Source: Prunella strophiata (taxonomy: Eukaryota > Chordata > Aves > Passeriformes > Prunellidae). From it: a DNA stretch of 64,000 nucleotides. Below, one piece after another: positions 2,943 through 49,234 of this stretch; position 1 is the first letter of the stretch; every line of letters starts with the position of its first letter. Location of the stretch: assembly GCA_036583965.1 (NCBI GenBank), contig JAZBQD010000007.1, forward strand, positions 558,001 through 622,000, written 5' to 3'. The translations under genes were made by a program, and so were the position numbers. The notes beneath the pieces were generated by a model. The model ran no database searches. It was not told the origin of the DNA and was given only the letters and a program-made list of their open reading frames with translations.

Positions 2943-4641
2943 ATGGAGGCCTGGGTGCGCTTCAGCGCCCAGAGCCAGGCCCGGGAGCGCCTCCTCAGGT
3001 GCAGCCTCGGCTCCCCGGGCCCCGCGGGCTGTCACGGGGGGCCCGGGAGATTCGGAGGGGGGGGTTACGGAGAGCCCGGGGAAGGGGGTCACGGAAGCCT
3101 CGGAATCTGAGGAGTGGGATCACGGGGGTCCCAAAATTCCGGGGCGGCGGGTGCGCCGTCACGGATGCCTTAGAGCCCAGAGAAGGGGGATCCGAGGCCC
3201 CGGGGTGATGTCTCCAGTGCTCCGTGCCCCCCCTGACTCCCCCGTTGTCCCCAGGGCCGCCCAATACGCCTGTACCTTGGCCGGGGCCGCGCTGAGCCGC
3301 GCCGGGAACGGCTCCGGGGGCAGCTCCGGGACCCTGAGCCGCCTGCAGCACCTGGAGGCTCATCTGAGCCTGGGCCGCAAGCGTGAGTGGGTTGAGGGGG
3401 GAATCAGGGCGGGTTTGAGGGGGGATTTTGGGGTCTGCACACCCTTGGTGACCCCCTGGTGTCCCCTCCTGCAGTGCTGCGTTTGGGGGGGTTCAGGGCA
3501 GTTTTGAGGGGGGATTCTGGGGTCCCCACACCCGCAGTGACCCCCCTGGTGTCCCCTCCTGCAGTGCTGCGTCTGGGGGGCTCGGCCGAGGCCCTGGGCG
3601 GGGCCCAGCGCTCGCTGCACCTGCCCGACCCCGTCCTGCGCTTCTGCCTCACCCTGTCCCACCTGAACCGGGCTCTTTTCCTGGCCTGTGACAACGTCCT
3701 GTGGGCAGGGAAAACTGGGGTCCTGCCCGGCCTTGCCATGGAGAAGTGGAGCCAGAGGTCCTTCAGGTGAGCAAGGAGAGGTGTCTGAAATTGGTGAGGG
3801 ACTCATGGAAGGAAGGTTGGAAAAGCCTCCTCAGGTTTGCTGGGTGAGCAGGGCAGGAAGGTCAGATTGCCAAGGGAGAGCAGGGAACGGGATTCCTGAG
3901 GGAGAGCAGAGAATGGGGTTCCCCTGGGGAGAATGAGGACTGGAATTCCTAAGGGAGGACAGGGAGTGGAAGTACTGAAGGAGAGTAGGCAATGAGCTCC
4001 CCAAGAGAAGGCAGGGAATGAAGTTCGTTGGGGGAGAGCAAGTGGTGAATTTCCAAAAGAGGTCAGGGAACAGGCTTTTTGAGGGAGACTGGGCAATGGA
4101 ATTCCTAAGTGAGGGCAGGGAATGGAATCCCCATGGGAGAGCATGTTCCTGTGGCTGAACATGACTTTTCCATTCCCCCAGGCATTTCTGTGGCTGTTGG
4201 GAGTGGCAAAAGGCTTCTGCTGCCACTGTCTCCCTGTTCTCCCTGTTTTCCTGCTCCCTGTTTTTCCCAGGTATTTACCTGTTTGCCCTGGTGGTGAACC
4301 TCAGCAGGGATGCCTACGAGATCCGCCTGCTGCTGGAGCGTGCCCAGGCTGCCAGGAAACGTGGCAAGAGCCCAGAAAACAGACCCCAGCTGCAGGCTGA
4401 GGGCAGGATCCAGCACCTCCGGCTCCAGCTGCAGCTCCAGCTGCAGCTCCTGCTGCAGGTGCTGAGGGACAACCCCCCTCTGCTGCTGGACCTGCTGAGG
4501 AATGCCTGCGACCTGGTGATCCCCCTGGAGAAGCTGGGCTTGTGCAGGAGCAGCCCTGGGATTGTGGGGTTCTGTGGGCTCACCTCCTCCGTGCTCTCCA
4601 TCATCACCATCCTCCACCCCTGGCTCAAACTGAAGCCGTAG
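2943..4641 (+). CDS. PEX11B: PEX11B, peroxisomal membrane protein 11 beta (one apparent frame break)
   Basis: Four exons: 2943-2998, 3255-3382, 3565-3766 and 4271-4641. The start gives [19 protein letters not shown], near-identical to mammalian PEX11B; later come [27 protein letters not shown] and, in exon 4, [14 protein letters not shown] and [19 protein letters not shown] before the stop at 4641. PEX11 proteins sit in the peroxisomal membrane and drive elongation and division; the amphipathic N-terminal region and a C-terminal hydrophobic segment are visible. Exons 1-3 are phase-consistent, but exon 4 is 371 bp where 370 is needed: GTATTTACC near 4271-4279 has one T too many to reach [11 protein letters not shown] infer an assembly error rather than a null allele, because the frame downstream is perfectly conserved. 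Expected length is about 251 aa (human about 259). Confidence 0.93.
3384..3580 (+). repeat. 90-bp tandem duplication spanning the PEX11B exon 3 acceptor
   Basis: The block ending tcccctcctgcagTGCTGCG occurs twice, at 3461-3481 and 3551-3571, exactly 90 bp apart. The second copy is the functional acceptor plus the first bases of exon 3 (LRLGGS). The first is an intronic decoy acceptor followed by about 16 nt of exon-like sequence. The intervening ttgaggggggatt segment is duplicated too. Confidence 0.85.
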
Positions 4642-8138: not shown

Positions 8139-8174
<36 letters not shown>

Positions 8175-11100
8175 CAAAAAAGAACATTTCCACCCCCCGG
8201 TCCTGCCCCCGGGATGAGGGGGGGCGCAGGTTCACCCCCCCGCCTGTGGGGTCTCCTCACACTCCCCGCCTCAGAGGGAACTGAGACACATGGGCAGCAC
8301 TGGGACTTAATTTGGGTGGCAGGGATGTGTTTGGGGTGCTGGAGGTTCTCCGTGGGGTGCCCCCCCTCTTCCCCGCAGCTTTCTCCTCCCCACCGGGGTG
8401 CCGGGCACCCCAGTCCTCCTCCTGGATGCCACTGGATGTGTGCGGGGTGCCCTCCCCACCTCAGGACCCTCCATTACCTCCCCAGGGCTCTGTGAGGGAT
8501 TCAACATCGACGTGGAGCATTCGAGGGTCTTTCAGGGGTCCCCCGAGTCCCAGTTTGGTTACCGGGTGCTGCAGTGGGGGGACGATGGGGACAAGTGGTG
8601 AGTGATCCCCGGGGGGAACCGGGGGAGACGGGAGAGAAGGGGAAACTGAGGCAGGAAAGGGGAGATTGAGGTGGGGAGAGGGGGAAGGGGAATGGGGGAA
8701 AAGGAAACCGAAAGAGGGAGGGGGGAAATGAGGTTGGTAAGGGGAAAAATGAGGTAGAAAAGGGGAAACTGAGGTAGGAAGGGGGGCAGTGAAGTGGGAA
8801 AGGGGCAGCTGAGGAGGGGAAGAGGGAAACAGAGGGTGGGTGGGGGAAACTGACTCAGAAAAGGGGAGAAGGGAGGGGGAAACTGAGGTGGGAAGCCAAA
8901 ACTCAGATGGGAAGAGGGGGATGTGAGTTTGGGAAAGAGAAACTTAGGCAGGGAGGGGGGAGGTTGACGTTGGGAAACATCGAAGGGCAGGGGCCAGAGC
9001 AGCAGGAGGCTGTGGCCGGATGGCTGGACAGACAGACAGACAGACTGGAAGCAGCCTCTGTGCCACAGCGTGGGTGGTACAGCCTGGCACAGTGCCCCCA
9101 AAAACGTGGCTGGCCATGTTGGAGCAGGCAGGGAGGAGTGGTGACATCTCCGATGTCCCTTGTGTGTCCCCCCCCAGGCTGCTGGTGGGGGCCCCGTGGG
9201 ATGGGAATGGCCAAGGTGACATCTACAAGTGCAACGTGGGACTCCAAAACTCTTCCTGTGCCAAGGCCAACCTCGGTACTGAGGGGGGTGGCTGTGACTG
9301 GTGAGGGAGGCCTGGAGGGCCCCACAGAGCTCACCCTGCTTCTGTCCCTGTGGCCTCAAGGGGCCGCAGCTCCGTGGCTCCGCAGCAGTGCCGGACACCT
9401 CGGGATGACGCTGATAGACTCCAAGGATGGGGGATTCGTGGTAAGCAGAGCCTCCACAGAGGAAAACTGAGGCGTGGTAGGGGATGGGGAGAGGGAGATG
9501 GATGTCACCCACTGTTGTGTCCTCATGTCACCCTCATGTCAAGGCGTGCGCCCCGCTTTGGTCCCAGGAATGTGGCACCTCCATGTTCAGCTCCGGCCGC
9601 TGCGTCCAGCTCAACGAGGAGCTCCAGCTCATGGGCACCATTGCACCCACAGCACAGCGTGAGTGGGGTGGCACCTACTGGGACCTACTGGGATGTGCCA
9701 CCCCTGGTGTCACCATGTCTCCTGCCAGGTTGTTCTACCTTCATGGACATCATCCTGGTTCTGGATGGCTCCAACAGCATCTACCCCTGGGAGGAGGTGC
9801 AGGCGTTCCTCGGGAACATCCTGGGACGCTTCTTCATCGGCCCTGGGCAGACCCAGGTGAGGGTGGGGCACCTTGGCCACCATGGTGTCCCCCAGGCTGG
9901 GATGGTGTCCCCAGGGCAAGGTCTCCAGGGCAATGCCATTGTCCCTTGGGGTGATGTCATTGTCCCTGGGGTGATGCCATTGTCCCTGGGGTGATATCAT
10001 TGTCCCTGGGGTGTTGCCACCCCTGTGGAGATGCTGCCCCAGGGTGATGTTTATGTCCCCAGGACTATGCCAGCTTGAGATGGTTTTGGAGGGGCCAAAG
10101 GTGCCCTTTTCCAGGGATTGGGGTTCCCGTGGGATTTGGGGGAGCTCCCTTTTGATTTTGGGGGTCCCTGGCTCAGGTTTCCCCCTGTTTCAGGTGAGGG
10201 GGCTTCTGTACAGGGAGCGGTTGGTGCAGGAGCAGGTGCTGGGGCAGCATCCTGGGGATTTGAGGGGTCCCCGTGGATTTGGGGATCCCCTGTGGATTTA
10301 AGGAGTCCCTGTGGGTTTGGGGATTCCCTGTGGGTTTGAGGGATGTCCCTGTGGGTTTGGGGCTCCCTCTGGCTCTGACTGTCCCTGTTGCAGGTGGGGG
10401 TGCTGCAGTACGGGGAGCGGCTGGTGCAGGAGTGGGCGCTGGGGCAGCACCCCACAGCCCAGAGCCTGCTCGAGGCTGCACGGAACCTGACACGGCAGGA
10501 GGGCAGGGAGACCAGGACAGCCATGGCCATCAGGGAGGCATGGTGGGCTCTGGGATGGGAATGTGAGTGGGCTTGGGAATGGGGGCAGAATTGGGGATGG
10601 GATTGGTGTCAGAATTGAGATCACGATTGGGATTGGGAGAGGGAGTGGGGCTGGGATTGGGATCAGAATTGGGACTAGGGTCTAGGTTGGGATGAGGATT
10701 TGAATAAGGATTGGGTTTGGAACTGGTATCAGGTATGGGATCAAGTCAGGATTTGGATTGGGGTTGGGGTTGGGACTGGGATCAGGATCAGGACTGGGGA
10801 GCAGGGTTGAGGGTGGGGCTGAGCAGGGGTTCATTCTCCAGCCACCCTCCCACAGCACCGAGTCCTTCAGCCCGGCGCGGGGCGGGCGCCCGGGGGCCGC
10901 GCGGCTGCTGCTGGTGGTGACGGACGGCGAGTCCCACGACGGGGACGAGCTGCCCGCGGCGCTGGCCGAGTGCGACCGCCACAACGTCACCCGCTACGCC
11001 ATCGCCGTGAGCCCCCTGCCCGCCACCCCCACCCCTGCCCTGAGCCCTGGGGGGATGGGATCCTCCTGCTGAGCCCTGTCCCTTCCTCAGGTGCTGGGGC

Positions 11101-14100
11101 ATTACCTGCGGCGGCAGCAGGATCCCGAGGATTTCATCCGCGAGATCAAGTTCATCGCCAGCGACCCTGATGAGAAGTATTTCTTCAATGTCACAGATGA
11201 GGCTGCCCTCAATGATATCGTGGATGCTCTGGGAGATCGGATCTTCAGCCTGGAAGGTGATGGTTTGAGGCTGGGATCCCGGGAAGGGCTGGGAATTCCA
11301 GCTGGAAGTACAGCTAGAGGAACAGAGTCTCCTTCCTCCCCTGGTCAGGCACTCATGGGGACAACGAGAGTGCCTTCGAGCTGGAGATGTCCCAGATTGG
11401 CTTTTCCATCCACCACCTCGAGGTGATACCACCGGAAAAATAAGTTATTTTCCATGAAAGGTGGAAAATAACTCTCAGCCCATCTCAGCCCTGCTGAGTG
11501 TCCTGGGATGGGAGAGTGATATTGGTGGGGGTTGGGGACACTGAGGCATTGTGGTATCCCCCCTGGTTGACATGTCCCACCCATCCTGGCAGGATGGGAT
11601 CCTCTTTGGAATGGTCGGAGCCTATGACTGGGAGGGGGGTGTGCTGGAGGAGAGCCAGCGTGGGCGCATTGTTCCACCCCGGGAAGCATTTCAGGAGGAA
11701 TTCCCGCTGGAGCTGAAGAACCATGCGGCGTATCTGGGTATGGGGGGTCCCGAGGGATGAGGGGGAACCAGGTGTACTCCACATCCTTGAGATTTGAGGT
11801 GAATCAGGGATATTCCATGTCCTGGAGATCAGGGGTGAAGTGGGGATACTCTGTGGAATGGGTATTTGGGATCCTTGGTGATAGAGAAATGCTCCATGTC
11901 CCAGGGATGCTCCATGAAATGGATATTTGGGGTGTCCTAGGGATACTCCATACTCCAGGGATGCTCCAGACCTGGATATTTAGGATGCCCCAGGAACACT
12001 GCCCTGTCTCCTCAGGGCTGTCCCTCCCTCTGACCCTGCTCTTCCCCCCCCAGGCTACTCGGTGTCCTCGCTGCAGCTCCCGGGGGGGCAGCGCCTGTTG
12101 GTGGCTGGTGCCCCCCGATTCCAGCACAGGGGCAAGGTTGTCCTCTTCCAGCTGGACCCCACAGGGACTGTGACAGTGGCCCAGGCACTAATGGGGGACC
12201 AGGTGAGGGGCAGCAGGGGGCCTTGAGGGCCTTGGCGGGGGAGTTTGGGCCCCCTACCCCCCCCTCAGCCTCACAGCCCCTTGCACCCCCAGATCGGCTC
12301 CTACTTCGGCAGCGAGGTCTTGGCCCTGGACGTGGAGGGAGATGGGGACAGCGAGCTGCTGCTGGTGGCCGCGCCCACCTACCTGGGGGGCCAGAGCAGG
12401 GAGACGGGGAGGGTCTATGTGTACCGGGTGGGGCAGGTGAGAGGGCAGGGGTGGGACTGGGGGTGTCGGGCTGTGGGGTAGCTGTACGGTGTGGGGCAGG
12501 GGGCAGGGGACTGGAAGGATCAGGGGGATGCAGAGGGATTGAGGGAATTTGAGGGGATCGGGGGAACACATTGGGATTGAGGGGGTGCCTGTCTCGTGGG
12601 GGTACCGAGGCCCCCCCCCCCGCACCTCCCAGGACCGCCTGAGCCCCGCGGGGTCGCTGCACCCCGAGCCGAGGCCGCAGGATTCCAGGTTCGGCTCCGC
12701 CCTGGGCGCGGTGCCCAACCTGAGCCAGGACGGGCTGGCCGGAGCCGTGGTGGGGGCTCCGCTGGAGGACGGGCACCGCGGGGCTCTCTACGTGTTCCAC
12801 ATCGCCCCGGTCACCCTCCTGCCCCAGTACAAGCAGGTGAGATGGCGCTGGGTGCGCTGGGAGGGGCTGGGTGCCACGGTTGCGGTGAGTGAGCACAGCC
12901 CTGTACGAGCCACTGGCGATACCAAAACTCTCCCCAGCGCATCGAGGCGGCGGCGCTGGGGTGGAGCCTCCGTTATTTCGGGATCAGCGTGGACGGACGG
13001 CTGGACATGGACGGGGACGGGCTGGTGGACGTGGCCGTGGGGGCGCAGGGGGCGGCCGTGGTGCTGAGGTGAGTAGGGGTCGGGGGTCGGGGACAGGGAC
13101 GCCCCGGCCACAGGGATACCCCGGGAATAGGGACATGAATGACAGAGAGACCCCGGGAATTGTGACATGTGGGTCATGGGGACATTCGGGAGAAAGGGAC
13201 TCCGTGCCTCAGTTTCCTCTTGTAAGAACCTGCTCCCGGGATCCTCCCAGGGCTCTCCATGCCTCAGCTTCCCCTGTGACAGGACCCAGGGCAGGGTGTC
13301 CCTGTCCCCACGTGATCCCGCTGAGATCCCGGCTGTGCCCGTGTCCCGCAGATCCCGCCGGATCGTCCGGGTGGCCGCGGCGGTGTCGGTGGAGCCGGCG
13401 GCCGTCAGCGTCACGCGGCGGAACTGCCGGCGCGGCGGCTCCGGCGCTGTCTGCCTCCGCGCTCGCGTCTGCTTCCGTGCCGAGACGCGCTCACGGGGCC
13501 CCACGGACATGGATATTGGTGAGTGTGGACTGCAGGGATCCTTGGAGCATCCTTGGAGCATCCCTGGCTGGGACTGGAGCATCCCAGAAGCATCCCAAAG
13601 GCTCCTGGAGCATCGCTGGCTGTCTCCAGAGAATTCCAGACTGGGATCCTTAGAGAACCTGGGTGTCCCTGGAACATTCCTGGAGTGTCCCAAGGTATCC
13701 TGGAGAATTCCTGAAACATGTCTGGAGCATCCTGAGGGACCTGGATCATCACAGGGAGGATTACAATGTCCCTGGAGCCTCCCAAGAGCATCCCATGGGC
13801 ATACCCTTAATCTTTCCAGAGCATATATTTGGTGGATCCTGGAATCTCCCAGGGGCATCCTGCAGTGTCTCTTGAATATCAACAGAGCACCCATATCACT
13901 GAAGCATGCCACAACATCCTGGAGCCTCTGAGGCTTCCCTGGAGCCTCACTGGTGCAACCCAGCGTGCCCCTGGAGCATCCCTGCCCTTCCCTGGAAGGT
14001 GCTCCTGCTGGAGCAGCCCCTCCTGCAGGTGTCCTGGTCCCTGACCCACTCCCTCTCCCGCAGATCTCTGGTACAACGTGTCCCTGGAGGAGCAGCTCCT

Positions 14101-17100
14101 GGGATCCCGAGCTGCCTTCGACTCAGGTGCCCGCCAGCTGCTCCAGCGCCGGATCGAGCTCCCACTGGGCAGGCAGAGCTGCACCCGCGTCCCCTTCCAC
14201 GTCCTGGTCAGCCCCAGGGCTCCTCCCACCCCCATCCCTGGGCTCTGACCGGGGTGAGGCTGATGGGAACCCCTGGTTCTGCAGGACACCTCGGATTACC
14301 TGCGGCCCCTCAGCCTCAGCCTCAGCTGGGCCCTGGATGCAGCTGCAAGGTCGGTGCTGGATGAGGCGTCTCCCACCACCATCCGCAAACTGGTGTGTAC
14401 TGGGAGGGGTGTATTGGACAGTGGGATCAGCCCCGGGCACCGGGATCAGCCCTGGCTCCTTCCAGATCCCGTTTTTCAAGGATTGCGGCGACGACGAAGA
14501 GTGTGTTACCGACTTAGTGCTCAAGGCCACGACGGACATCGTGGGCTCCAGGTACCCCTGGCATCCCCTCAGTGTCCTCATGGTGTCCCTGAGATCCCAG
14601 GAGCCCCCTGTGACCCTCCTGGCCTCCAGGCAGAGCCCCCACATCCTGCGGAAGGGCAGGAGGCGGATGCTGGTGGAGGTGGAGCTGGAGAACCGGGAGG
14701 AGAATGCCTACAACGCTAGCCTGTGGCTGCACCTGCCTGGGAACCTCCACTTCTCCAGCCTTGTGCTCCAGGTACAGTCTGGGGGGAGCTCAAATCCCTG
14801 AGGAGCCCCTCCAAACTCTCCCACCAAATCCCTGAGGAGCCCCTCCAAACTCTCCCACCAAATCCCTGAGGAGCCCCTCCAAACTCTCCCACCAAATCCC
14901 TGAGGAGCCCCTCCAAACTCTCCCACCAGGGTGAAGATGGAGACTCAGGTCTTTGGAGAACCTCTGGGTCATTCTTGTCCCAACCCATTCCAGGTGGGAT
15001 GGGTTGGAGTCTGTTGGGTCCCCAAACCCATTTCAAGGGGGACAGGGGGGTCCATGGTGTCCCCAACCTCTCCCAGGTCTGAGCTGGGGGTCCACTGTGT
15101 TCCCAGCCTATTCCATGTGGGACGTGGGGGTCCATCGTGTCCCCAACTCCTCCCAGGTGGGAGATTGTGTTCCATTGGCCCCCCAGTATTCTCCTGTGGG
15201 GGTCCATTGCTGCCACCTCCCAGTGTCCCAAGCCCCCCAGCTCCATGTCCTCGTGGTGTCCCCCTGGCAGGACCCCAGCTCGGTGAAGTTGGAGTGCTCA
15301 GCCCTGGGCGGGCACTGCTGGCGCTGCAGCGTGGGCTACCCCATCTTCCGCTCACAGGCCAAGGTAGGACCCCTGATACCCCCCCATGAGCCTCTTGGGA
15401 TCCCCCAAACCCCCACCACACCCCTCTGAGCCTCCCCCCCCCCCCCCCCAGGTGTCCTTCACCCTGGAGCTGGAGTTCAGCTGCTCCGTCCTTCTGGACC
15501 ACGCTGAAGTCACGCTCCAGGCCACCAGGTAGGGGTGTGGCTGAGCCCTCGGGGTTTGGGCATGGGTGGAGTCTGGGGACACTCCTGAGTGTCCCCCCTG
15601 TCTAGTGACAGCACTGAGGTGACACCACAGGACAACGTGGTCAAGCTTTCTGTCCCCATCCGTTATGAGATCAACCTGTTCCTGTCCAGGTGAGGCTGGG
15701 AGAACATGAAGCAGAGTGGGGGGATCATGGAGGGGGACACACATGATGGATGTGACCCTCCTGTGTGTCCCCCAGCAACACCAACCTGCAGCGCTATGAG
15801 GTTCATCCCCTTGGCACCTTCACCCACAGCTCTGGCCCTGAATTCACCACCACGCTCAAGGTGAGATGGTGAGAGCCTGGGGAGCAGGGCCTGGGGGAGC
15901 CCTGGCTCATGGTGCCCCCATCCAGGTGCAGAATTTGGGGTGCTACCCCACCCAAAACATCACCCTGCACATGGCCCTGCCAGCGCTGGGCCACCAGCAG
16001 GCCACCATCCTGTCTGTCATCCGTGTCCTGGCTGAAAATGTGAGTGTTGGGGACACTTAGGGGGTCTCTGGGAGGTCCCTGTGCCCTCCATTTGAACAAC
16101 CTGTCCCCCTCCCCAGGCCACCTGCGTGCTGCAGCCCCCCCAGGAGGGGGCACGGGTGGTCCTGGTGCCCCCCGAGGATCTGCTGCACACAGACAGGCTG
16201 GTAGTTATCGTTGTGCCCACCCTGCCCACTCCCCCCCCCCCCCCCCCCCCCCCCGCCCCGAGGATTTGGAGGGTTCAGGGGGGATCTCTACCACTCCACC
16301 CCCAAATTTTTGCCCCCCAGGACTGTTCCAACACCTGGTGCCAGGAGCTGAGCTGCCGCTTGGGGAGGCTGGAGCGTGGCGGGGGAGTCTCTGTCCAGCT
16401 CCTGCGCACCCTTCACGAGAGCTTCTTCAGCAGAGTGAGTGAAGGGGAGCACGTGGGGAATTAGGAAGCCCCCCATTCCAGGGAGGATCCTGGGTGGAGG
16501 CACACATGGCTCAGAACCCCCCTTTTCCCATGTGCAGGTGAAATTCCGGAGCATGAGGATAGTCAGCAGTGTCTGGCTGGCAGTCACAGGGGGTGTGCTG
16601 GTGCTGGAGGAGGGGGCACAGCGCAGGGAGGTAGGACCCCCATGCCCAATTCCCCGTTTCCCCCTTCATCCTTGTTTCCCTCCCCAAATTCCCTGTTCTC
16701 CCTCAATGCCTGTTGTACCCCCCAATCCGTTTCCCCTCTAATCGTTGCTTTTCCTTCCAAATTCCTTCTTTCCACCCAAGTCACTTTTCCCCCCCAAATT
16801 CTCTGATTTCCCCCATCCCCAGTTTTCCTCCCCAGATTCCCCATTTCCCCTCCCCTTATTCCTGGTTTTCTCCCCCAAATTCTCTTTCCTCTCTCCAATC
16901 CCTGTTCCTGCAGCTGGTGCTGGAAGTGCTCCAGGGAAGGCGGGTGCCCGTGTCCCTGTGGATCCTGGGGGGCAGTGCCCTGGGGGGGATTCTACTCCTG
17001 GCACTGCTCAGCCTCGGCCTCTGGAGGGTGAGGGGGTCATGATGTCACCTTGGGGAGGGTTGAGATGCCACGGGGATGGGGGGGGGGAGGGGTAGGCTTG

Positions 17101-17306
17101 GGAGGGTCACGTTGTCACCCTGGGGGAGGGTCATAATGTCATCTTGAGAGGGTCATGATGTCATCCCGAGTGGGAGGTGTCAATTTCCCCCCTCCCTGAG
17201 GGAAGGCATTTCCACCCCCCAAACCCTCCTCTTCCCCCTTTGCCCCCAGATGGGATTCTTCTCCCACCGGAAGCCTTCCCCGGAGGAGGAGGAGGAGGAG
17301 CACTGA
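7748..17306 (+). CDS. ITGA10: ITGA10, integrin alpha-10 (collagen-binding alpha subunit), complete
   Basis: Thirty exons with GT-AG ends and unbroken phase: 7748-7799, 8486-8597, 9178-9275, 9361-9440, 9544-9658, 9729-9856, 10394-10542, 10856-11006, 11091-11256, 11349-11422, 11593-11737, 12054-12202, 12293-12436, 12633-12836, 12938-13068, 13352-13518, 14064-14206, 14285-14392, 14466-14551, 14630-14771, 15271-15363, 15452-15528, 15606-15689, 15776-15860, 15926-16039, 16117-16200, 16321-16434, 16538-16630, 16914-17027, 17250-17306. They give 1152 aa (human about 1167). A signal peptide (ALFLLPG) and beta-propeller ([17 protein letters not shown]) come first. The inserted I domain at ~160-370 has the MIDAS DGSNS and TDGESHDG. 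Cation-binding FG-GAP loops ([19 protein letters not shown]) follow, then a leg region, one membrane helix (~1107-1134) and a short acidic tail with GFF. It pairs with beta-1 integrin as a collagen receptor in cartilage. PEX11B adjacency supports ITGA10 over ITGA11. Confidence 0.96.
8600..8960 (+). repeat. Purine-rich degenerate minisatellite in ITGA10 intron 2
   Basis: Irregular tandem copies of about 20-25 bp of the type ggggaaactgaggtaggaag fill most of this intron. The plus strand is almost free of pyrimidines apart from the recurring 'actgag', giving strong strand asymmetry. Confidence 0.7.
10190..10255 (+). pseudogene. Ghost copy of the ITGA10 exon 7 start, with acceptor
   Basis: Exactly 200 bp upstream of exon 7 (10394), a copy of its acceptor and first ~58 nt appears after the tttcag ending at 10193. 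It reads [20 protein letters not shown] against the real [20 protein letters not shown]. It diverges beyond this and lacks a convincing donor, so it is a partial exon duplication. Confidence 0.8.
13520..13920 (+). repeat. Degenerate 'ctggagcatcc' repeat in ITGA10 intron 16
   Basis: Short motifs such as ctggagcatcc, ttggagcatcc and cagagcatcc recur irregularly with variable spacing. The period is too diffuse to define, and no exon sequence is included. Confidence 0.5.
14786..14930 (+). repeat. 34-bp minisatellite in ITGA10 intron 20
   Basis: Four near-perfect copies of a 34-bp unit starting caaatccctgaggagcccct and ending ctctcccac lie just after the exon 20 donor. Copies are practically identical, so the array is young or homogenised. 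No exon bases are included. Confidence 0.9.
16226..16258 (+). repeat. Poly-C tract in ITGA10 intron 26
   Basis: A run of roughly 25 C residues sits just after the exon 26 donor in a 120-bp intron. A similar run of about 17 C precedes the exon 22 acceptor at 15434-15449. Such runs are prone to sequencing error, but they do not disturb the coding phase here. Confidence 0.85.
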
Positions 17307-17505: not shown

Positions 17506-17511
17506 AATAAA
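17506..17511 (+). terminator. ITGA10 polyadenylation signal AATAAA
   Basis: The hexamer AATAAA lies 200 bp after the ITGA10 stop, within cagcaataaagctctggcc and followed by tgtgg/tgt-rich sequence, typical of a cleavage region. This gives ITGA10 a short 3' UTR. Confidence 0.8.
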
Positions 17512-18085: not shown

Positions 18086-18089
18086 GGCC

Positions 18090-19046: not shown

Positions 19047-22000
19047 TCAGAAAGTCCATCTCTCCTGCACTGGGCTGTCAGAAGCATCAGGATTTGGGAT
19101 TTGCCGGGTGGAATCTTCCCCCTTTAGGCTCTTCCTGCAGACTGGACACGTGTCATGCTGTGGGGAACACAGAGTTTTATCCTGGGGGATTATCCCATGG
19201 GATACATGGGTTTGCTGGGATCTTACCAGCTCCAGCCAGGGCACGATGCAGCTGCTGTGGAAGACGTGGTTGCAGGGAAGCTGCCGGACCTGCTCTGCCA
19301 CAGCGTAATCCTCCTTGCACACTGGGCATTCCAGCCCTGTGTCTGTGGAAAACATGGAATGGCAGGTGAGGGGGACAGGAATAAAGGCTCTGGTATTTGG
19401 GAGTCACTTGTGCAGTGTCTGCTGGGAATGGGGTGTGTAAGAACCAAAGGGATCCCACCAGGAACAGGAGCTCTGGGATTTACAGGTCGTTTGTGTCTGT
19501 GATAGAGCATCCAGGGATCAAAGACTTCCTGCCAGATACAAGCCAGGATCCATCCATCCACACAAAATCCTGTGGGATGGAGCATCCAGGGAACAAAGAA
19601 TTCCTGCTGGGAACATGACCTCTGAGCTCCACCAGCTGGGATCCATCTATCCACACACAACCCCAGGGAATATATGGAATTCCTGGTGTTCCATGTACAT
19701 CACCATTAACAAACAAAAATCAAAGGATGTTTGGATGCCTGCCACAACTTCCTGGCCTGGAATATGGGTTAAAAATCCCAATGCCAGGTGTCAAAAGCCA
19801 TGGGCTGAAATCCCACTCCCTCTCCTCCTGTTCCAAGCTCATGATGCTGACATGTACACCACCAGGAGCTGAGCTCCTCGGGCGATCCCAGGGATCCCTT
19901 CCAACTTGGATATTCCAAGATTTAATGATTCCTAGCCTGCTTGGGCTCTGTGAGTTCAGACCCATGGAATTCCTGCTAGTCCTTGGCTTCCCGGAGGAGG
20001 ACAGAGGGGTGTGTAAAACCACAGGATAAAAATATCCTACATAGAACTGTCTGGTTTAACCATAATGGAGAAGTAGGATTCTGGTAATGGAGCAGCTGGG
20101 AGGGGGAGAGATCCTTGGGGTGAAAAATTAATGGGATTTTTAATTGCAAAACCAGGATTGTTTTGAGACACCCCCCAGGCCCCTGCTGGCAGTTTTCTAT
20201 GACATTTCCAGAGCAGAGTATGTTGAAAGCTAGTTTGAAAGGGAAGGGATGAGTTGAGAGCACAAACAGGGTTCCGGGATGGGAAAATCATTATGGGGAT
20301 GAGAAGAGTCAGAACAGCACATTCTAGGACTCCCCAAACACTCTGAAGAATGGTGCAGCTCCAAAATTCCTGGGAGAACTGAACACCAGAGCTGGCAGCA
20401 GCAAAGCCTGTGAGCTGACAGTTTCCAGCCCAATTCCACAGGGAACAAAGTGGTAATGGGGGAGCTCAGGATTACAAGCACCAGGATCCAAGTGCCATCA
20501 AATTCGGGTATGGAGTCACCCACCGACTTGCTCCTGCGTCACCGGCACTGTTGGGAGTGATGAGATCTTCTCCTTGTCTGCTGGTGGTGGTCCTGTGTTT
20601 TCCAGCTGTCCCAGGAGCTGTGGAGAGGAAAGAGTTTCGTGCTCAGGAGCGGGGATCTACCACTGGATCTGCCCCTGGCAAAGGTGCCCCTCACCTGAGT
20701 GACAATGGCATCGAGGCCGCTCTGTCCCCACGCGTAATCCCCAGGGCTGGAGTGCAGCATCCCGCTCCTGCCAATGGGAGAGTCCAGGAATTCCCCCCGC
20801 TCCCAAACCAGCCCCTAGGTGCTGGGTTATTGGTAGTTACTGGTGGGATCTGGGCTACTCACCAGGAGAAGGGATGTTGGGAGCCAGGAACAGCTGAGTT
20901 GGCAAAAAACCCAGCAAAGATCTGCTGGATTATTCTGAAAAATGAGGCATGCGAAGGGAAAACATGGGAAGAACAAGTTAAATAAGTAAATAAATGGTGG
21001 AAGAAAAGATGGGCAGGAGAACCAGGAATTCCTGCTCTATGGATGCCTGGCTGCATGGCTCATGACCATGAAAATCCCTGGATAAAGTTCCAAAACAGAG
21101 AGAGACAGCAGGAAGTAATTAGGAATACAAGCTCATCCCAGGGAGGGAGAAGTGGGAATGACTCGAGTTCCAACAGAAGAGTTGTTACTGGGACAGGGAA
21201 AACCAGGGAAAAACATGGAAATAACAAGCTAAATAAATAAATAAACAAACAGTGGCAGAAGAAATAATCAGTAAAACAGGGAATCCCTTCCCCGTGGATA
21301 CAGGCCTTACAGTTGGAAATTTCCTGGGTAAAGCTCCAAAATAGAGGGAGAGCATAAAGGAATTAGGGATGGGAACTCATCCTGGGACGTGAATGCTGAG
21401 AATGCCCTGTGTTCCAGGCAGCAGGACAGGGAAAACGACTCAGAATTGTGCTGATGGGGCTGACAGAAAGTGCCAGGATCCCATTTCCCCAGGTTTTCTC
21501 CCTAAATCTCCTGGTTTCCCCAGAGAAGACGCTCACCCCTCGATGGCAGGCGAGCAATCCAGGTGGGAGCTGCCGCAGAACCGGTACCTCCGAGGCATCG
21601 GAAAATGCCCTGTGCTCCAGGCAGCAGGACAAGCAAAACGAATCAGAATTGTGCAAAACAACTCAGAATTGTGCTGCCAGGAAGTGCCAGGATGCCCATT
21701 TCCCCAGTTTTCTCCCCAAATCTCCTGGTTTCACACTCACCCCTCGATGGCGGGCGAGCGGTCCGGGCGGGAGCTGCCGCGGGACCGGTACCTCCGAGGC
21801 ATCGGCAGCCTTGGGGGGCGACTGGGCCCCCAGAGCTCAGCTGGGGGACCCCTCTCCACATCCCGGCCCTCTGGATCCAGGGAGCTGCTGCTGCTCAGGA
21901 ATGGCCGGAAATCTGGGAAGAATACTGTGTGATCCAAGTGGTCCCAAAGCTGTGGAGAGGAGGAAGATGGGAGACATGATCCCCACTCAGCTCCGGAGCT

Positions 22001-30310: not shown

Positions 30311-30545
30311 GGGGGTTTTATGGGATTTTGTGGTGTTTTTATGGGATTTTGTGGTGTTTTTATGGGATTTTGTGGTGTTTTTATGGGATTTTGTGGTGTT
30401 TTTATGGGATTTTGTGGTGTTTTTATGGGATTTTGTGGTGTTTTTATGGGATTTTGTGGTGTTTTTATGGGATTTTGTGGTGTTTTTATGGGATTTTGTG
30501 GTGTTTTTATGGGATTTTGTGGTGTTTTTATGGGATTTTAACAGG
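30310..30545 (+). repeat. 21-bp minisatellite in the same PI4KB intron
   Basis: About 11 near-identical copies of tttttatgggattttgtggt(g). Single copies of the same motif occur inside the larger units on the left, so this array expanded from their edge. Confidence 0.95.
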
Positions 30546-30664: not shown

Positions 30665-37315
<6,651 letters not shown>

Positions 37316-38612: not shown

Positions 38613-38639
38613 TCGAGCCCGCGGCTTTCCATCAGCACA

Positions 38640-38965: not shown

Positions 38966-40704
38966 CCCTCCCTCCCTTCACCCCAAATCTAGCTCAAGGC
39001 ACTGAAATGCTGGAAAACCGTGGGTCCAAAGCCATAGTTCCATAGTTTTTTTTTTTTTTTTGGGAATTTTTTCCTTCTAAATCTCGTAGAAACTTTAATT
39101 TCTTCTCTATATTTACATCTGGCCCGGGGGATTTTTGGGAATGGCCGATTCCACCTGATTTTTCCCAGTTTTTTCCAACCCTTTTTCCATCCATCCACCT
39201 GCAGGGGAAAGGGGAGGGAAAATTTCCCCTCATTCCTGCTTGGAAAAAGTCAGAAAAACCAGGAATAAAAAGCCCAAAAGAAAAAAAAAAAAAAATCAAC
39301 CCCAAAGCAGCTTCTGCCATCCCGAAAAACACAAAAAAAGGGGAAAAAAACCTTGGAAAACCAAACCAAATCCCAGAAGGAGCACAGCAGTTGTTGGGAT
39401 TCGTGGATTTTAGTGTATGATACAACTTTACAGGGACAGGGGAAGGTTATCCACAGGGAATTCTGGGAATAGTGGAGTCTGGAGGGGCTTTTCCAGAGGA
39501 TTTTTGGGGGATTGGAAGCAGGAAAGGTCCTGGATCCTGAGGGGAAGAAGGAGCTGGAAAAAAGCTGGAAAAAGGCTGGAAAAGCCACCAGACCTCATCC
39601 TCAGCCTGGAATTCAAGAGTTTTCCCACTTTTCCTTCAGGAAAAGGGTCCTGGCTGGGATTTGAGGGATCCCTTCCCAATCCTGTTTTTTTTTTTTGGGT
39701 CGTTATTCCTTTGCCAAAGGAAAAATCTTCTCTTTTCCTCCTTTTTTCCAGATTTTTTCCTCCTCCTGTTCCCTTGGGAATGTCCAGCCCAGTGTCTGAG
39801 TGTCCTTCCCAGGGACCTCTGGAATTCCAGGGCTCTGGAATCGCCTCCTTCCCAACAAAACACACCAGGAACATTTCCCAAATGTGAAAAAAATATCCAG
39901 GAAAAACAAACAAAAGCCAAAAAATAGAAAAAAAGGTGGATTTTGCTGGAAAAGCTTCCCCAGCCCCGTCTGGATCCGGGAATTTCTGGGAAGAGCCCAT
40001 GGGGTCCCAGAAATTCCAAATCCCCCCAAAATCCAACATTCCTGGGTGATTCCCAGTGGGATTTGGGATCATCCCAATCCCAATCCCATTCCCAACTTTC
40101 CCTTGGACACCGGGAAGGGCTCTGGGGGTGTTTTATGTACACGGCGCCGATTCCCGGCCTTGGAGCCAATCCTGGAATTCTGAGATTCCTGGGAATGCTC
40201 AGTTCTCCTCAGATCTGATCCTGGAACTCCTGGAATGCTGAGATTCCTGGGAATGCTCAGTTCTCCTCAGATCTGATCCTGGAACTCCTGGAATGCTGAG
40301 ATTCCTGGGAATGCTCAGTTCTCCTCAGATCTGATCCTGGAACTCCTGGAATGCTGAGATTCCTGGGAATGCTCAGTTGTCCTTGGGGCTGATCCCAGAA
40401 TTCCAGGAATGCTGCAATTGCCAGGACAATCCCAGAATCTCAGGAATTCCAGGATTCCCAGGAAGGCTCAGTTCTGCTGGGATGAAGCCAATCCCAGAAT
40501 CTCAGGAATTCCAGGAGGGCTCAGTTCTCCTCGGCTCCCTGCCGGGCTCGGATGAAGCCAATCCCAGAATCCCAGAATTCCAGGATTCCCAGGAAGGCTC
40601 AGTTCTGCTGGGATGAAGCCAATCCCAGGATTCCCAGGAATGCTCAGTTCTGCTGGGATGAAGCCAATCCCAGAATCCAAGAATTCCAGGATTCCCAGGA
40701 GGGC
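38966..40704 (-). other. ZNF687 3' UTR region (minus)
   Basis: No conserved coding exon is seen between the ZNF687 stop (40705) and the PI4KB side. Possible minus-strand ATTAAA signals are at about 39092 and 38566, and neither is decisive. The part nearest the stop is a tandem repeat (see 40185-40745). Confidence 0.5.
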
Positions 40705-40745
40705 TCAGTTCTCCTCGGCTCCCTGCCGGGCTCGGATGAAGGCCA
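40185..40745 (-). repeat. Tandem repeats that include the ZNF687 stop-codon region
   Basis: At 40703-40742 the real coding end ([11 protein letters not shown] plus TGA) reads, on the plus strand, gctcagttctcctcggctcc, ctgccgggctcggatgaag. An apparently identical ~40-bp copy is at 40518-40557. Shorter copies with ggatgaagccaatcccag lie at about 40480, 40609 and 40656. Farther out, four 58-60-bp units carry gctcagttctcctcagatct (40199-40380). Confidence 0.85.
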
Positions 40746-43700
40746 TTCCATGGGTCCGGAAATGCGTCTTGAGGTTGAGCTGACTCTCGAAGCCCCTCCC
40801 GCACACTTTGCACTCCAGCTTCCCCTCGGACCCGCCGGAATTCCCGTCGTTGTTCCCTTGGGAAGCGCTTCCCGAGGAATCCTCGGGCTCGGCTCCCTTC
40901 TTCTTCTTGTGGGAGATGAAGCGGTGGCGGTTCAGGGAGATCTGGGAGGTGAAGCAGAGGCCGCACTCCCGGCACTGCTGGGAATTCCCGTCCGTGCGGT
41001 GCTGCGGGATGTGGGCCTGGAATTCCGCCCGGCTCCCCGCCAGGAAGCCGCACTTGCGGCAGCGGAACGGGGCCTTGGCCCCGCAGGGTTTGGGGTTCTT
41101 GGCAGGGGGGGTGGTGCTGTCGGGCTCCTCGCTGCAGGAGTCGTCCGAGGAGAGCTTCCGCTTGCGGCCGGGCGCCTGGAAAAGAGGGAAAATTGGGAAT
41201 TCCCAGCGAGGTCTGGGGGGGCAATTCCCAGCAAGGAGCTCCTGGGAAATCCCTTGGGAAGTGGGGCAGCTCCCAGAAGGAATTCTGGGGTGAGGAGCTT
41301 CCGATCCTGCCACAAACGCTGAAATTCCCAGGAAACCCCAGGAAATTCCATGATAAACCCCACCTGGGGAGTCCCGGATCCAAAACCTTCCCACTTGGAT
41401 AAACTTTAGCGCTGAGATTTGTGGGTTCCCAGCAGGAATTCCAGGATAAAACCCCCCCCAGTCCTGCCCCAGACCCCTAAAATTCCCAGGAAACCCCAGG
41501 AAATTCCGGATAAACCCCACCTGGGCAGTCCCAGATCCAAAACCTCCCCACCTGGATAAATTTTACCGCTGAGATTTGTGGGTTCCCAGCAGGAATTCCA
41601 GAACAAATTCCCCTCCCAGTCCTGCCCCAGACCCCTGAAATTCCCAGGAAACCCCAGGAAATTCCGGATAATCCCCACCTGGGCAGTCCCGGATCCAAAA
41701 CCTCCCCACTTGGATAAATTTTAGCACTGAGATTTGTGGGTTCCCAGCAGGAATTCCAGGATAAACCCCCTCCCAGTCCTGCCACAACCACTGAAATTCC
41801 CAGGAAACCCCAGGAAATGCTGGAATTCCAGGATAATCCCACCTGGGCAGGGCCAGCAGGGCCGTGGGCGATGACGACCTCCTGGCTGCGGGCGGGATCC
41901 GTGACTTTGATCCCGTGCCGCACCTGGATGTGCTTCTCCAGGATCAGGCGGCTGCTGAAGGTTCTCTTCCCCTCCGTGCAGTACCTGGCAATGGAGCAGC
42001 CCGGTTTTCCTGGGAATTCTGTCACTGGAATTCCCAAATTCCAACCCCAAATGGGACTGGGGGTGATGCAAACCCTGGAGTCCTTCCTGATCCCTCTTTT
42101 CCCTCCTCATTCCTGGAATTTCAATTTCCATACTGGGCAGAGCAGGTGGGAATTAAACCCTGACTCCTTGGGAATTAAACCCTGACTCCTTGGGAATTAA
42201 ACCTGGACTCCTTGGGAATGAAACCCTGATTTTCCTGGAAATTAAACCCTGATTTTCCTAGGAATGAAACCCTGATTTCCCTGGGAATGAAACCCTGATT
42301 TCCCTGGGAATTAAACCCTGATTTCCTGGGAACTAAACCCTGATTCTTTGGGAACTAAACCCTGATTCTTTGGGAACTAAACCCTGATTTCCCTGGGAAT
42401 TAAACCCTGATTCCCTGGGAATTAAACCCTGATTCCCTGGAAATTAAACCCTGATTCTTTGGGAACTAAACCCTGATTCCCTGGGAATTAAACCCTGATT
42501 TTCCTGGGAATTAAACCCTGATTCTTTGGGAACTAAACCCTGATTCTTTGGGAACTAAACCCTGATTCTTTGGGAACTAAACCCTGATTTCCCTGGGAAT
42601 TAAACCTGATTTCCCTGGGAATTAAACCCTGATTCCCTGGGAATTAAACCTGATTTCCCTGGGAATGAAACCCTGATTCCCTGGGAATTAAACCCTGATT
42701 CCCTGGGAATTAAACCTGATTTCCCTGGGAATTAAACCTGATTTCCCTGGGAACTAAACCCTGATTCTTTGGGAACTAAACCCTGATTCTTTGGGAATTA
42801 AACCCCGATTCCCTGGGAATTAAACCCTGATTCTTTGGGAACTAAACCCTGATTCCCTGGGAATTAAACCCTGATTCCCTGGGAATTAAACCTGATTTCC
42901 CTGGGAATTAAACCCTGATTCTTTGGGAACTAAACCCTGATTCCCTGGGAATTAAACCCTGATTCCCTGGGAATGAAACCCTGATTCCCTGGGAACTAAA
43001 CCCTGATTCCCTGGGAATTAAACCTGATTTCCCTGGGAATTAAACCTGATTTCCCTGGGAATGAAACCCTGATTCCCTGGGAATTAAACCTGATTTCCCT
43101 GGGAACTAAACCCTGATTCCCTGGGAATTAAACCCTGATTTCCTGGGAATTAAACCTGATTTCCCTGGGAATTAAACCCTGATTCCCTGGGAACTAAACC
43201 CTGATTCCCTGGGAATTAAACCCTGATTCTTTGGGAACTAAACCCTGATTCTTTGGGAACTAAACCCTGATTCTTTGGGAACTAAACCCTGATTCCCTGG
43301 GAATTAAACCCTGATTCCCTGGGAATTAAACCTGATTTCCCTGGGAACTAAACCCTGATTCCCTGGGAATTAAACCCTGATTTCCTGGGAATTAAACCTG
43401 ATTTCCCTGGGAATTAAACCTGATTTCCCTGGGAATTAAACCTGATTTCCCTGGGAATTAAACCCTGATTCTTTGGGAACTAAACCCTGATTCCCTGGGA
43501 ATTAAACCCTGATTTCCCTGGGAACTAAACCCTGATTCCCTGGGAATTAAACCCTGATTCTTTGGGAATTAAACCCTGATTTCCCTGGGAATGAAACCCT
43601 GATTTCCTTGGGAATTAAACCCTGATTTCCCTGGGAATTAAACCCTGATTTCCCTGGGAACTAAACCCTGATTCCCTCGGAATTAAACCCTGATTTCCCT

Positions 43701-46700
43701 GGGAACTAAACCCTGATTCCCTGGGAATTAAACCCTGATTTCCTGGGAATTAAACCTGATTTCCCTGGGAATTAAACCCTGATTCCCTGGGAATTAAACC
43801 CTGATTCCCTGGGAATTAAACCCTGATTTCCCTGGGAATGAAACCCTGATTCCCTGGGAATTAAACCCTGATTCCCTGGGAACTAAACCCTGATTCCCTG
43901 GGAATTAAACCCTGATTCCCAAAAATAATTCAGATTCCCAAATCCTCCCACTGCCATGATCCAGGAGCTGGGATTCCCACTCCAGCTGCAGGAACTCCAT
44001 TTCCCCTCATATCCCACCCAGAATTATCCCCAAAATCCTCAACCCTGATGGGATTTTCCCCCAGGAGCTCCCCAGGGCTGACCTTGCCGTGCTCCCTCTT
44101 CATGTGCGCCACGTACTCGTCGCGCTCGGGGAACCAGGAGTGGCAGACGCCGCAGGTCCAGCCGCTGCCCTTGGATTTGCTCCCGGATTTCCGCTGGAAG
44201 CGGCTCCGCTTGGCCTTGCGCAGCTCGGGGGAGCTCGGGGGCTCGTCCTCCTCCGTGGAGCTCGAGGAATCCTCGGAGTTCTTGGACACCGGAGTCTCCA
44301 GAGGCTCCGGCTTGGGCGTCAGCAGGGCCGAGGATTTCTTGGAAGAGTCGTCCTTGGATTTCTGGGGCTGGTGGGTGTTCTGGGAAAGGCAGGTTTGGGA
44401 ATTTCAGGAGGGAATTGTGGATGTGGAGGGACATTCCCTGGTGTGCCAGGCAGGATCCAGGGATGGGAATCCATGGAAAAACCTGGGGCAGGGTCCAGGA
44501 TTTATCCCAAAGAAACCAGGACAGGGAATCCTGGAATGGCTTGGGGTGGAAAAGATCCTTAAACCCCACCCAGACCATTGCTCCCATTTCCCTCCACTCC
44601 CCATCCAATTGGGGCATGGAATTTTGGCTTTTTCGGTTGGAATTCCATCATTTTCAGCAGGAATTCCTCCATTCCCAGCTGTAATTTTGCCATCCCTAGC
44701 TGGAATGGTGCCTGACCTTGAGGTGCTCCAGCATGGTGCTCTTCTGGACCCTGAGCACTCCCCACTCAATTTCCCCCAACTTGAAATTTCGTTTCTGGCT
44801 GGAATTTCACTGGTTTTGGCCGGAATTTTGCAGTTTTCGGCCGGAATTTTGGCTGGAATTTTGGCATTCCCAGCTGGAATTCTGCCTGGGGCAGTGCCTG
44901 ACCTTGAGCTGCTCGAGCATGGTGCTTTTCTGGACCCTGAGCACTCCCCACTCCGCCACCCAATTTCCCCCAACTTGAAATTTCGTTTCTGGCTGGAATT
45001 CCATTGGTTTTGGCCGGAACTTTGCCGTTTTCGGCCGGAATTTTTGCCGTTTTCAGCCAGAATTTTGCCAGTTTTGGCTGGAATTTTGGCATTCCCAGCT
45101 GGAATTCTGGCTGGGGCAGTGCCTGACCTTGAGGTGCTCGAGCATGGTGCGTTTCTGGGCGAAGAGCAGCGGGCACTGCGGGCAGCGGAAGACGCTGACG
45201 CGCTGCGGCAGCAGGTGCTGATCGAAATGCGACGAGAGCAGCGGCTTGTGCGTGAACACCGTGTCACACATGGCACACTTGTAAATCATCCTGGGGAAAA
45301 ACAAGGGAAAATGGGAAAAATGGGATGGGGGAGATGGGAGAGGGAGGGGAAAGGGAAGGAAAAAGGAGGGAAAAGAGAGAAATAAAGGAAGGAAAAAGGG
45401 AAAAGAAAAGGAGGGAATAACAGAGAAACAAGGGAAGGATAAAGGAGGAAAAGGGAAGGGAAAAGAAATGGGAAAGAAGAGGAAAAACAGAGAAAAGAGA
45501 GGGGAAGAAGAAGGAAAAAATAAGAGAAAAGGGATGGAAAAAGTGAGGTGGGAGTTGAGCTCATCCCACCCACAGAGGAGGTTCTTCCAATCATGGAATA
45601 ATCCCAGTTCTCCCAATCCTGGAATCGCTCAGGCAGAAAAAGCCCTCTGGGACCACCACTATCCAACATTCCCAAGTGCCACATACAGAAATTTTCCAGC
45701 CAATTCCACCACCAGCTCCCTTCCCACAGCAAAACATTCCCAAATCTCCCATCCCAACCTTTTTTGGGATGAACCCCAGCCCGCTCCCCTGGATCCTGGG
45801 CATTAAAAGGAACTGGGAATTGGGGAAGAAGTGGGAATTTTTCCAGGGACACTCACTTGGATTGCTGGTTGCTGAAGCCAGGGTGCTGTGTGTAGACGTG
45901 GGCGTGGGCGCTGGGGGCGGATTTGAAGGCCATGGGGCAGATGGGACACTTGTGGAAAACCTCGCAGTGGGAACTCTGGATGTGGGATTTGATGGAATTG
46001 ACGCCGCCGAACACCACGGAGCAGCTGGGACACCTGGAAAATTCCCAATGGAGACTGGGATCCAAAGCAGTTCTGGGGATTCCCAATGGAGACTGGGATC
46101 CAAAGCAGTTCTGGGAATTCCCAACTGGAACCAGGATCCCTAACAAGTTCTGGGAGAATCCCATCAAGGATCAGGATCCCAAACAAGTTCTGGGAAAACT
46201 CCCAACTGAAACCAGGATCCCAAACAAGGATTCCCAGAATTTCTGGGATTCCCTGACTCCATACCTGTAGCCCCCCACTGTGGGAGGAGTCCTTGAAGGT
46301 GGGACTCCAGCTTGGCCAGCAGGAAATTCCCACCTCATTCCACAGGCAAACTCCAACAAATTTTGGACCTTTCTATGGACAACGCATCCATTTCCAAACC
46401 TTTCCATGGCCCCACCACCCTTCCCAATGCCCTCCTCCAGAATTCCTGGGATCCCCTGGCTCTCACCTGTAGCCCACCCTGCGGGAGAAGTGCAGGCAGG
46501 AGTCCTTGAGGTGGGACTCGAAGTTGGCCAGCAGGAAGTTGCCGCCGCACTCGGGGCAGACGTGGGGCGGGCGGCTGCGGTGCATGCGCTGGTGCGCGCT
46601 GAAGCTGCAGCGGTTCGACAGGATCATGGGGCACGCCGAGCACACCTGCAAAACCCACAGCTCACCTGGAATTCCAGCCCCTGGGGCTCCAGGGTCCCAA

Positions 46701-49234: not shown

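What the first reader, a model, noticed from the sequence alone, without database searches (positions are those of the whole stretch)
2943..49234. Tandem repeats repeatedly seeded at exon boundaries: 12 cases in six genes
Seen directly: introns or UTR beside a true boundary hold extra copies of that exon end together with its splice site or stop. Donor type: RNF115 exon 1 (26173 vs 26221) and exon 4 (21540 vs 21741), POLR3C exon 3 (27790 vs 27601), PI4KB FxVLKxLQ (copies 30057, 30212) and VKD-R (about 60 copies from 30991), ZNF687 EHLK (44709, 44894 vs 45121), ZNF687 GYR (46263 vs 46461), ZNF687 penultimate exon (41517, 41676 vs 41843). Acceptor type: PEX11B exon 3, ITGA10 exon 7, PI4KB last exon. 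Terminal type: ZNF687 stop codon. Unit sizes run from 48 to ~220 bp and copies from 2 to ~60, with all grades of divergence. Inference: tandem duplication across exon edges is a recurrent birth route for minisatellites here, and it seeds introns with decoy splice sites. I know no general description of such a series, though single minisatellites across exon-intron borders are known.
Basis: partly seen in the sequence, partly recalled or inferred. Interest (0 to 1): 0.88.

Follow-up and report, generated by a model that had tools for sequence, protein, structure and literature searches.

The report
Songbird exon edges copied into introns
In a songbird genome, the ends of several gene exons, splice signals included, have been copied in tandem into the neighbouring introns, once about sixty times over; the copying is real, but the same thing was described in chicken in early 2026 as 'exon stuttering', so this is a further case and not a new kind of event.

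Summary
Of the 12 cases, 9 are clear tandem copies spanning a true exon edge or stop codon, 1 mostly abuts the edge, 1 has no parent exon in the window, and 1 (POLR3C) is weak. ITGA10, RNF115 and ZNF687 relatives point to a songbird. The phenomenon is in print as 'exon stuttering', found mainly on chicken dot chromosomes (Hron et al. 2026, PMC12954441). Their screen, rerun here, flags 5 of 53 introns: 65 proximal hits (61 in one PI4KB intron), 0 distal, none at threshold in 20 shuffles. Whether exon edges are hot spots stays open. By position, junctions lie in duplicated tracts less often than matched intronic points (7 of 110 against 16.7 expected). By family, edge-spanning ones are 0.9 to 3.2 times the expectation, depending on null and cut-off; slower decay of the exon copy could explain an excess. 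The two introns with the longest exon-flanked arrays each lack a conserved exon (PI4KB catalytic loop, ZNF687 zinc finger). Assembly loss is likeliest; real exon loss is not excluded. No decoy site is shown to be spliced.

The parts
2943..4641 (+). PEX11B, 4 coding exons
   Evidence: tblastn of recalled human protein; splice sites; Pfam PEX11
3396..3580 (+). 89-90-bp tandem duplication over the PEX11B exon 3 acceptor; decoy acceptor first base 3475, true 3565
   Evidence: decoy use would add 30 codons in frame without a stop
8486..17306 (+). ITGA10, 29 exons read as one open frame of 1134 residues (signal-peptide exon not placed)
10159..10452 (+). 200-bp duplication over an ITGA10 acceptor; decoy 10194, true 10394
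   Evidence: recalled weight-matrix score 8.5 for the decoy, 4.6 for the true site
21486..21805 (-). 204-bp duplication over the RNF115 exon 4 donor; true 21741, decoy 21537
   Evidence: decoy use meets stops
26155..26242 (-). 48-bp duplication over the RNF115 exon 1 donor; true 26228, decoy 26180 with an identical donor nonamer
   Evidence: decoy use would add 16 codons in frame
23298..23349 (-). RNF115 exon 3 (diverged from human, found by reading)
   Evidence: matching residues in songbird RNF115
27599..27824 (+). POLR3C exon end and a weak intronic look-alike
   Evidence: 26 of 40 identical; score 22; not flagged
29882..30368 (+). 136/156-bp repeat whose unit reads [F/I]xVLKxLQ then GTGAGG, like the end of the PI4KB exon before 30725
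   Evidence: parent exon not found in the window
30725..30990 (+). PI4KB exon ending VKD-R, parent of the array
30991..35038 (+). array of 57-163-bp units (58 bp commonest), 61 copies of the exon end
35039..36096 (+). 10-bp array (TCCCAGGGGG), about 103 copies, filling the rest of the intron
36602..37146 (+). tract of about 82-bp units over the acceptor of the last PI4KB exon (first base 37134)
40427..40750 (-). duplications over the ZNF687 stop codon into the 3' UTR
41305..41856 (-). 158-bp intronic repeat abutting the donor of the penultimate ZNF687 exon (41843)
42147..43920 (-). 22-bp array, about 80 copies, in the ZNF687 intron that lacks a conserved zinc-finger exon
44678..45158 (-). duplications over the ZNF687 EHLK donor; true 45128, copies 44903 and 44717
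46234..46552 (-). duplication over the ZNF687 GYR donor; true 46467, copy 46265

Best explanation
This is exon stuttering in a songbird. Local tandem duplication is frequent in the introns of this gene cluster. Some duplications straddle an exon edge. The exon stays intact because splicing can go on using the original site next to the coding frame, and the extra copy is left as intron or UTR. Copies then spread or shrink by slippage or unequal exchange, most strongly in PI4KB. Shown: the copies, their positions, open parent exons, and an intact GT or AG at the copied sites examined. Inferred: slippage or template switching during replication or repair as the cause, and selection letting edge-spanning copies persist while copies inside exons are removed. 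Not shown: any effect on splicing.
For: The published exon-stuttering screen flags 5 of 53 introns with 65 proximal hits at threshold (61 in the PI4KB intron) and 0 distal hits, none at threshold in 20 shuffles. 9 clear edge-spanning cases. CDS interior is nearly free of duplicated tracts (1.6% of points) against 40.8% of intronic points. The 9 introns I class as hosts are longer than the other 44 (medians 748 and 183 bp) and more TRF-covered (0.44 and 0.00), the latter in part because the copies themselves count. Unit lengths in the PI4KB array are irregular (57-163 bp) near the exon and almost all 57-58 bp in the far part, which fits expansion by exchange between copies (inference).
Against: Hron et al. 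tie the phenomenon mainly to dot chromosomes. The chromosome here is unknown, and the median TRF cover of the 53 introns is 0, below the 7-93% they give for dot chromosomes. Intron-length variation between individuals, one of their three main features, cannot be seen in one assembly. Several cases (RNF115 exon 1, PEX11B, PI4KB last exon, ZNF687 penultimate, POLR3C) are not flagged at their cut-off, and by their measure only 3 of the 5 flagged introns have the exon part reaching the border. The stop-codon copies lie in a UTR, outside their intron-only definition.
Confidence: 0.85

Rival explanations
1. Exon boundaries are mutational hot spots, so duplications start there more often than elsewhere.
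For: Gapped families, 115 boundaries: 10 of 20 span a boundary against 5.7-5.8 pooled (P=0.03-0.04), 6.6-6.8 within genes (P=0.07-0.08), 4.1-4.2 if the exon part may be at most 70 nt (P=0.003-0.004); at score 60 or more 10 of 15 against 4.3, 4.6 and 3.1 (P=0.002, 0.002, 0.0001) (earlier list of boundaries). Ungapped: 8 of 23 against 3.4 when at most 60 CDS bases may be covered (0 of 150 draws reached 8), 7 of 20 against 2.2 for families up to 800 bp (P=0.013), and 8 of 23 against 4.4 +/- 1.7 with the minimum lag as unit.
Against: Free placement expects 8.9 of 23. Junctions lie in duplicated tracts less often than matched intronic points: 7 against 16.7 +/- 3.5; 7 against 21.3 and 6 against 13.1 at two other cut-offs. 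The exon copy is held by selection, so edge-spanning pairs stay recognisable longer (inference, not modelled).
Confidence: 0.3
2. The arrays are largely assembly artefacts (false duplication or mis-joined repeats).
For: Two conserved exons are absent from the introns with the largest exon-flanked arrays. Frame breaks in the ZNF687 first coding exon and in PEX11B. Two 500-N gaps.
Against: Copies show several grades of divergence, which false duplication does not give. Hron et al. state that raw nanopore reads confirmed the general structure in chicken PHF8. Exact copy numbers here may still be wrong.
Confidence: 0.12
3. The repeated donors have a job, for example as decoys that hold U1 or slow splicing of the PI4KB intron.
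For: All 61 exon-end sites scored (true exon included) keep GTAATT. [quoted passage not shown]
Against: Recent copying alone explains intact donors. No RNA data. Use of the first PI4KB decoy meets a stop at once.
Confidence: 0.04

Closest known systems
Exon stuttering / sequence stuttering (Hron et al. 2026, Genome Biol Evol, PMC12954441; abstract, sections 7, 9 and 16 in full, passages elsewhere)
   Same: Edge of a coding exon with its donor or acceptor copied in tandem into the adjacent intron; exon intact; local; tens to hundreds of bp; imperfect tandems; same screen passed by 5 introns.
   Different: Songbird, not chicken; chromosome unknown and introns less repeat-filled by median; one array of 61 copies against their range 1-44; also a stop-codon/3' UTR case, outside their intron-only definition.
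Interferon-induced minisatellite with multiple splice donor sites (Nucleic Acids Res 1995;23:1854; title seen in a reference list; paper not held; that the gene is 6-16/IFI6 is recalled)
   Same: By its title, a minisatellite that supplies several donor sites.
   Different: There the sites serve a transcript by title; here use is unknown.
[quoted passage not shown] Gao and Lynch 2009, citation only)
   Same: Tandem duplication crossing an intron-exon boundary carries splice signals along.
   Different: There a new intron arises; here the copies lie inside an existing intron or UTR and no new intron is seen.

Membership tests
Exon stuttering (Hron et al. [quoted passage not shown]
   (the stop-codon case lies in a UTR)
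Exon stuttering (Hron et al. 2026) | blastn-short hit of 20 nt or more, bit score 42.1 or more, in a proximal intron, above shuffled control | tested here: met
   5 of 53 introns, 65 of 66 proximal hits; 0 distal; 0 at threshold in 20 shuffles. Five other claimed cases are not flagged
Exon stuttering (Hron et al. 2026) | Source exon part reaches within 1 base of the exon border (their >90% of cases) | tested here: inconclusive
   3 of 5 introns at 0 nt (RNF115 exon 4, PI4KB, ZNF687 EHLK); 14 nt in ITGA10 and 31 nt in ZNF687 GYR, where the hit breaks early; gapped alignment of these two spans the border
Exon stuttering (Hron et al. 2026) | Parent exon and reading frame intact | tested here: met
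   the parent exons read open; ITGA10 open for 1134 residues. Other exons are absent in PI4KB and ZNF687, and frame breaks lie in the ZNF687 first coding exon and between PEX11B exons 3 and 4
Exon stuttering (Hron et al. 2026) | Mostly on dot chromosomes with repeat-filled introns (190 of 236 introns) | tested here: inconclusive
   chromosome unknown; median TRF cover of introns 0, 35.7% of intron bases
Exon stuttering (Hron et al. 2026) | Intron length varies between individuals | not testable with these tools
   one assembly only
Donor-providing minisatellite (IFI6 type) | Repeat units used as splice donors in transcripts | not testable with these tools
   no RNA data; no exon 1 decoy insert among 120 listed RNF115 relatives by pattern scan
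Intron gain by tandem duplication | A new intron at a position without one before | tested here: not met
   the copies lie in existing introns or UTR; no exon of the parent genes is split by them in the models read

The most novel reading that the evidence does not exclude
Stuttering can remove exons. The PI4KB catalytic-loop exon and the ZNF687 zinc-finger exon are really gone or displaced in this lineage, taken out while arrays grew in the same introns, so that stuttering would be a step from intact gene to the gene loss seen on the smallest avian chromosomes. The best-scoring ZNF687 relative (a Prunella himalayana model) also lacks the same exon.
Probability: 0.07. Interest if true: 0.8.

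Novelty: new member of a known kind. Interest (0 to 1): 0.37.

Why it matters
It extends exon stuttering from chicken to a songbird, to a 61-copy array and to a stop codon. It gives a concrete, still undecided test of whether exon edges are hot spots, and it warns that conserved exons next to such arrays can be absent from an assembly and then be mistaken for gene damage.

Tried and rejected
Rejected: POLR3C as a firm case. Not used for significance: whose queries overlapped their own targets; replaced (its printed alignments of true copies are used for identities). flags 14 of 113 junctions as spanning with 0 of 100 controls; I count the 9 that score 58 or more and the ZNF687 penultimate donor (43) as borderline, not the other 4, the two visible of which score 30. 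Minimum-lag units understate unit length (24 bp for the PI4KB array), so searches used the lag of strong hits. RNF115 exon 3 first looked missing and was then found by reading. Searches used 113 boundaries without RNF115 exon 3; redone with 115. In one search the ZNF687 GYR and penultimate decoys were placed a few bases off (right positions); the stop met after GYR lies directly behind the true donor and is not affected. One search fetched five ITGA10 relatives that I did not analyse further. Own-genome search did not complete.

Literature: searches answered. Among the 15 papers listed only PMC12954441 holds 'sequence stuttering' or 'exon stuttering'; a paper with just one of the four terms would not be listed. 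The gene list of that paper is in supplements that I could not open, so I do not know whether chicken genes of this block are on it; PI4KB, ZNF687, ITGA10 and PEX11B are not in its main text.

Full report
What the window is. Reading frames and tblastn identify LIX1L (-), PEX11B (+), ITGA10 (+), RNF115 (-), POLR3C (+, cut by a gap), the C-terminal part of PI4KB (+) and ZNF687 (-). The human queries were recalled from memory, so names were checked otherwise: PI4KB and POLR3C against solved structures, Pfam for ITGA10 (N-terminal 571 residues), RNF115, PEX11B, LIX1L and part of ZNF687, and protein searches for ITGA10, RNF115 and ZNF687. The best ITGA10 relatives are songbirds (Aphelocoma 91%, Pseudopodoces 90%); non-passerine birds among the 120 listed lie at about 60-76%. 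The best RNF115 relative is a sparrow (95%; galliforms 77-84%). So the window is most probably songbird DNA, species unknown. I defined 60 exons and 53 introns. ITGA10 reads open through 29 exons for 1134 residues, which supports the splice sites used.

The observation. Nine of the twelve cases are clear; one is borderline, one has no parent exon in the window, one is weak. The strongest is PI4KB. Its exon ends ...[15 protein letters not shown], and 61 intronic copies of that end follow. GATAG|GTAATTAA occurs 62 times in the window, true exon included, and all 61 sites scored, the true exon among them, keep GTAATT. The unit is irregular (57-163 bp, with nested TAATTAATGAGT repeats) near the exon and almost all 57-58 bp in the far part.

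Is it more than chance, and is it special to exon edges? The copies are far beyond chance: 2318 lag segments of score 22 or more against a mean of 8.5 in two resampled copies. But introns here are full of tandem duplications. With 115 boundaries, 4 of 55 donors, 3 of 55 acceptors and 1 of 5 stops lie inside a duplicated tract, against 40.8% of intronic points, 17.2% outside the giant arrays, and 1.6% of CDS interior (score 22, margin 8). Points matched by gene and distance, giant arrays left out, would give 16.7 +/- 3.5 hits where 7 are seen; two other cut-offs give 21.3 for 7 and 13.1 for 6. So by position the boundaries are depleted, as they must be if copies reaching into exons are often removed.

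By family the result depends on the null. Ungapped: 8 of 23 families span a boundary; 8.9 expected under free placement, 3.4 if placements may cover at most 60 CDS bases (0 of 150 draws reached 8), 6.8 and 2.2 against 7 of 20 for families up to 800 bp, 4.4 +/- 1.7 when only intronic or one-boundary duplications are allowed and the minimum lag is the unit. Gapped, 115 boundaries: 10 of 20 against 5.7-5.8 pooled (P=0.03-0.04) or 6.6-6.8 within genes (P=0.07-0.08), 4.1-4.2 if the exon part is at most 70 nt (P=0.003-0.004); at score 60 or more 10 of 15 against 4.3 (P=0.002), 4.6 (P=0.002) or 3.1 (P=0.0001). So among duplications that a gene can bear, edge-spanning ones are over-represented here, 1.5 to 3-fold. 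Selection freezes the exon copy, so an edge-spanning pair stays detectable, and at a high score, longer than an intronic pair; the cases were also picked beforehand. I think this bias is the more likely cause, but I did not model it, and hot spots are not excluded.

What it is. [quoted passage not shown] I reran their screen on this window: 5 of 53 introns pass (ITGA10, RNF115 exon 4, PI4KB, ZNF687 GYR at exactly 42.1 bits, ZNF687 EHLK), with 65 of 66 proximal hits at threshold, 61 of them in PI4KB, 0 distal hits, and none at threshold in 20 shuffles. Their figure for dot-chromosome introns is 3.4%; this window was chosen for its cases, so the rates are not comparable. The window falls under this description. 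The dot-chromosome criterion is open: median TRF cover of introns is 0, though 35.7% of intron bases are covered. [quoted passage not shown] that this gene block lies on chicken chr25 is my recollection.

How it may work. Shown: tandem copies with exon edge and splice site; parent sites in frame. Inferred: replication slippage, template switching or repair creates a first tandem copy; exchange between copies expands it. The PI4KB array carries a perfect 26-nt palindrome, ATTAATGAGTTAATTAACTCATTAAT, 10 times in the array and nowhere else in the window; a hairpin there could promote slippage, which is a guess. Hron et al. likewise say that they can only speculate, and name repair under replication stress and meiotic events.

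What the decoys would do. On simple recalled weight matrices, decoys equal the true site in RNF115 exon 1, ZNF687 EHLK, PI4KB VKD-R (first two copies scored) and PEX11B, are about equal in the last PI4KB exon (9.3, 9.3, 9.9 against 9.8), weaker in RNF115 exon 4 (3.6 against 5.2), and stronger in ITGA10 (8.5 against 4.6). Use would add 16 codons in frame in RNF115 exon 1 and 30 in PEX11B; two of the last-exon PI4KB decoys would also extend in frame. It would meet a stop in RNF115 exon 4, ZNF687 EHLK, ZNF687 GYR, PI4KB VKD-R and ITGA10. A pattern scan of the 120 listed RNF115 relatives found no exon 1 decoy insert; 6 of the 22 printed N-termini, all passerine, instead lack VSPKLP, as use of a donor 18 nt upstream would give. 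There are no RNA data.

Missing exons. Joined PI4KB exons align to human PI4KB up to VKD and again from the VMGGLDGD exon, leaving out about 40 residues with the catalytic loop; they were not found in the six frames of the window by motif or tblastn. In ZNF687 the segment SVKKFPCHLC...VYPCR has the same length, 38, in 105 of the 108 relatives that hold both flanking anchors (12 of the 120 listed lacked an anchor); it was not found in the window. Both absences fall in the introns with the longest arrays that have exons on both sides. The Prunella himalayana model, best by score, also lacks the ZNF687 exon and reads intron instead; that piece matches the window at 81% over 37 residues. Assembly loss in hard repeats is likeliest, twice over; real loss is the novel case.

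Verdict. A sound and striking observation, well read in its anatomy, unproven on boundary preference and mistaken on novelty. New cases of a recently described phenomenon.

Noticed in passing
30991-36129: The PI4KB exon with the catalytic loop (about 40 residues) is absent; the interval is filled by two arrays.
   Followed up: partly
41985-44082: A conserved ZNF687 zinc-finger exon (38 residues) is absent from the intron with the 22-bp array; the Prunella himalayana protein model lacks it too.
   Followed up: partly
30991-35038: Perfect 26-nt palindrome ATTAATGAGTTAATTAACTCATTAAT, 10 copies in the PI4KB array and none elsewhere in the window.
   Followed up: no
48060-48860 and 3755-4280: The ZNF687 first coding exon changes frame several times, and PEX11B breaks frame by one base between exons 3 and 4: possibly base-call indels.
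   Followed up: partly
26228-26246: RNF115 exon 1 has a second GTGAGCCCC donor 18 nt upstream of the main one; 6 of 22 printed relative N-termini lack VSPKLP and so may use it.
   Followed up: partly
28715-29214 and 52026-52525: Two 500-N gaps; the first cuts POLR3C, and the 5' part of PI4KB is not in the window.
   Followed up: no
52526-64000: Many tandem arrays, no clear gene read by eye in the listed frames.
   Followed up: no
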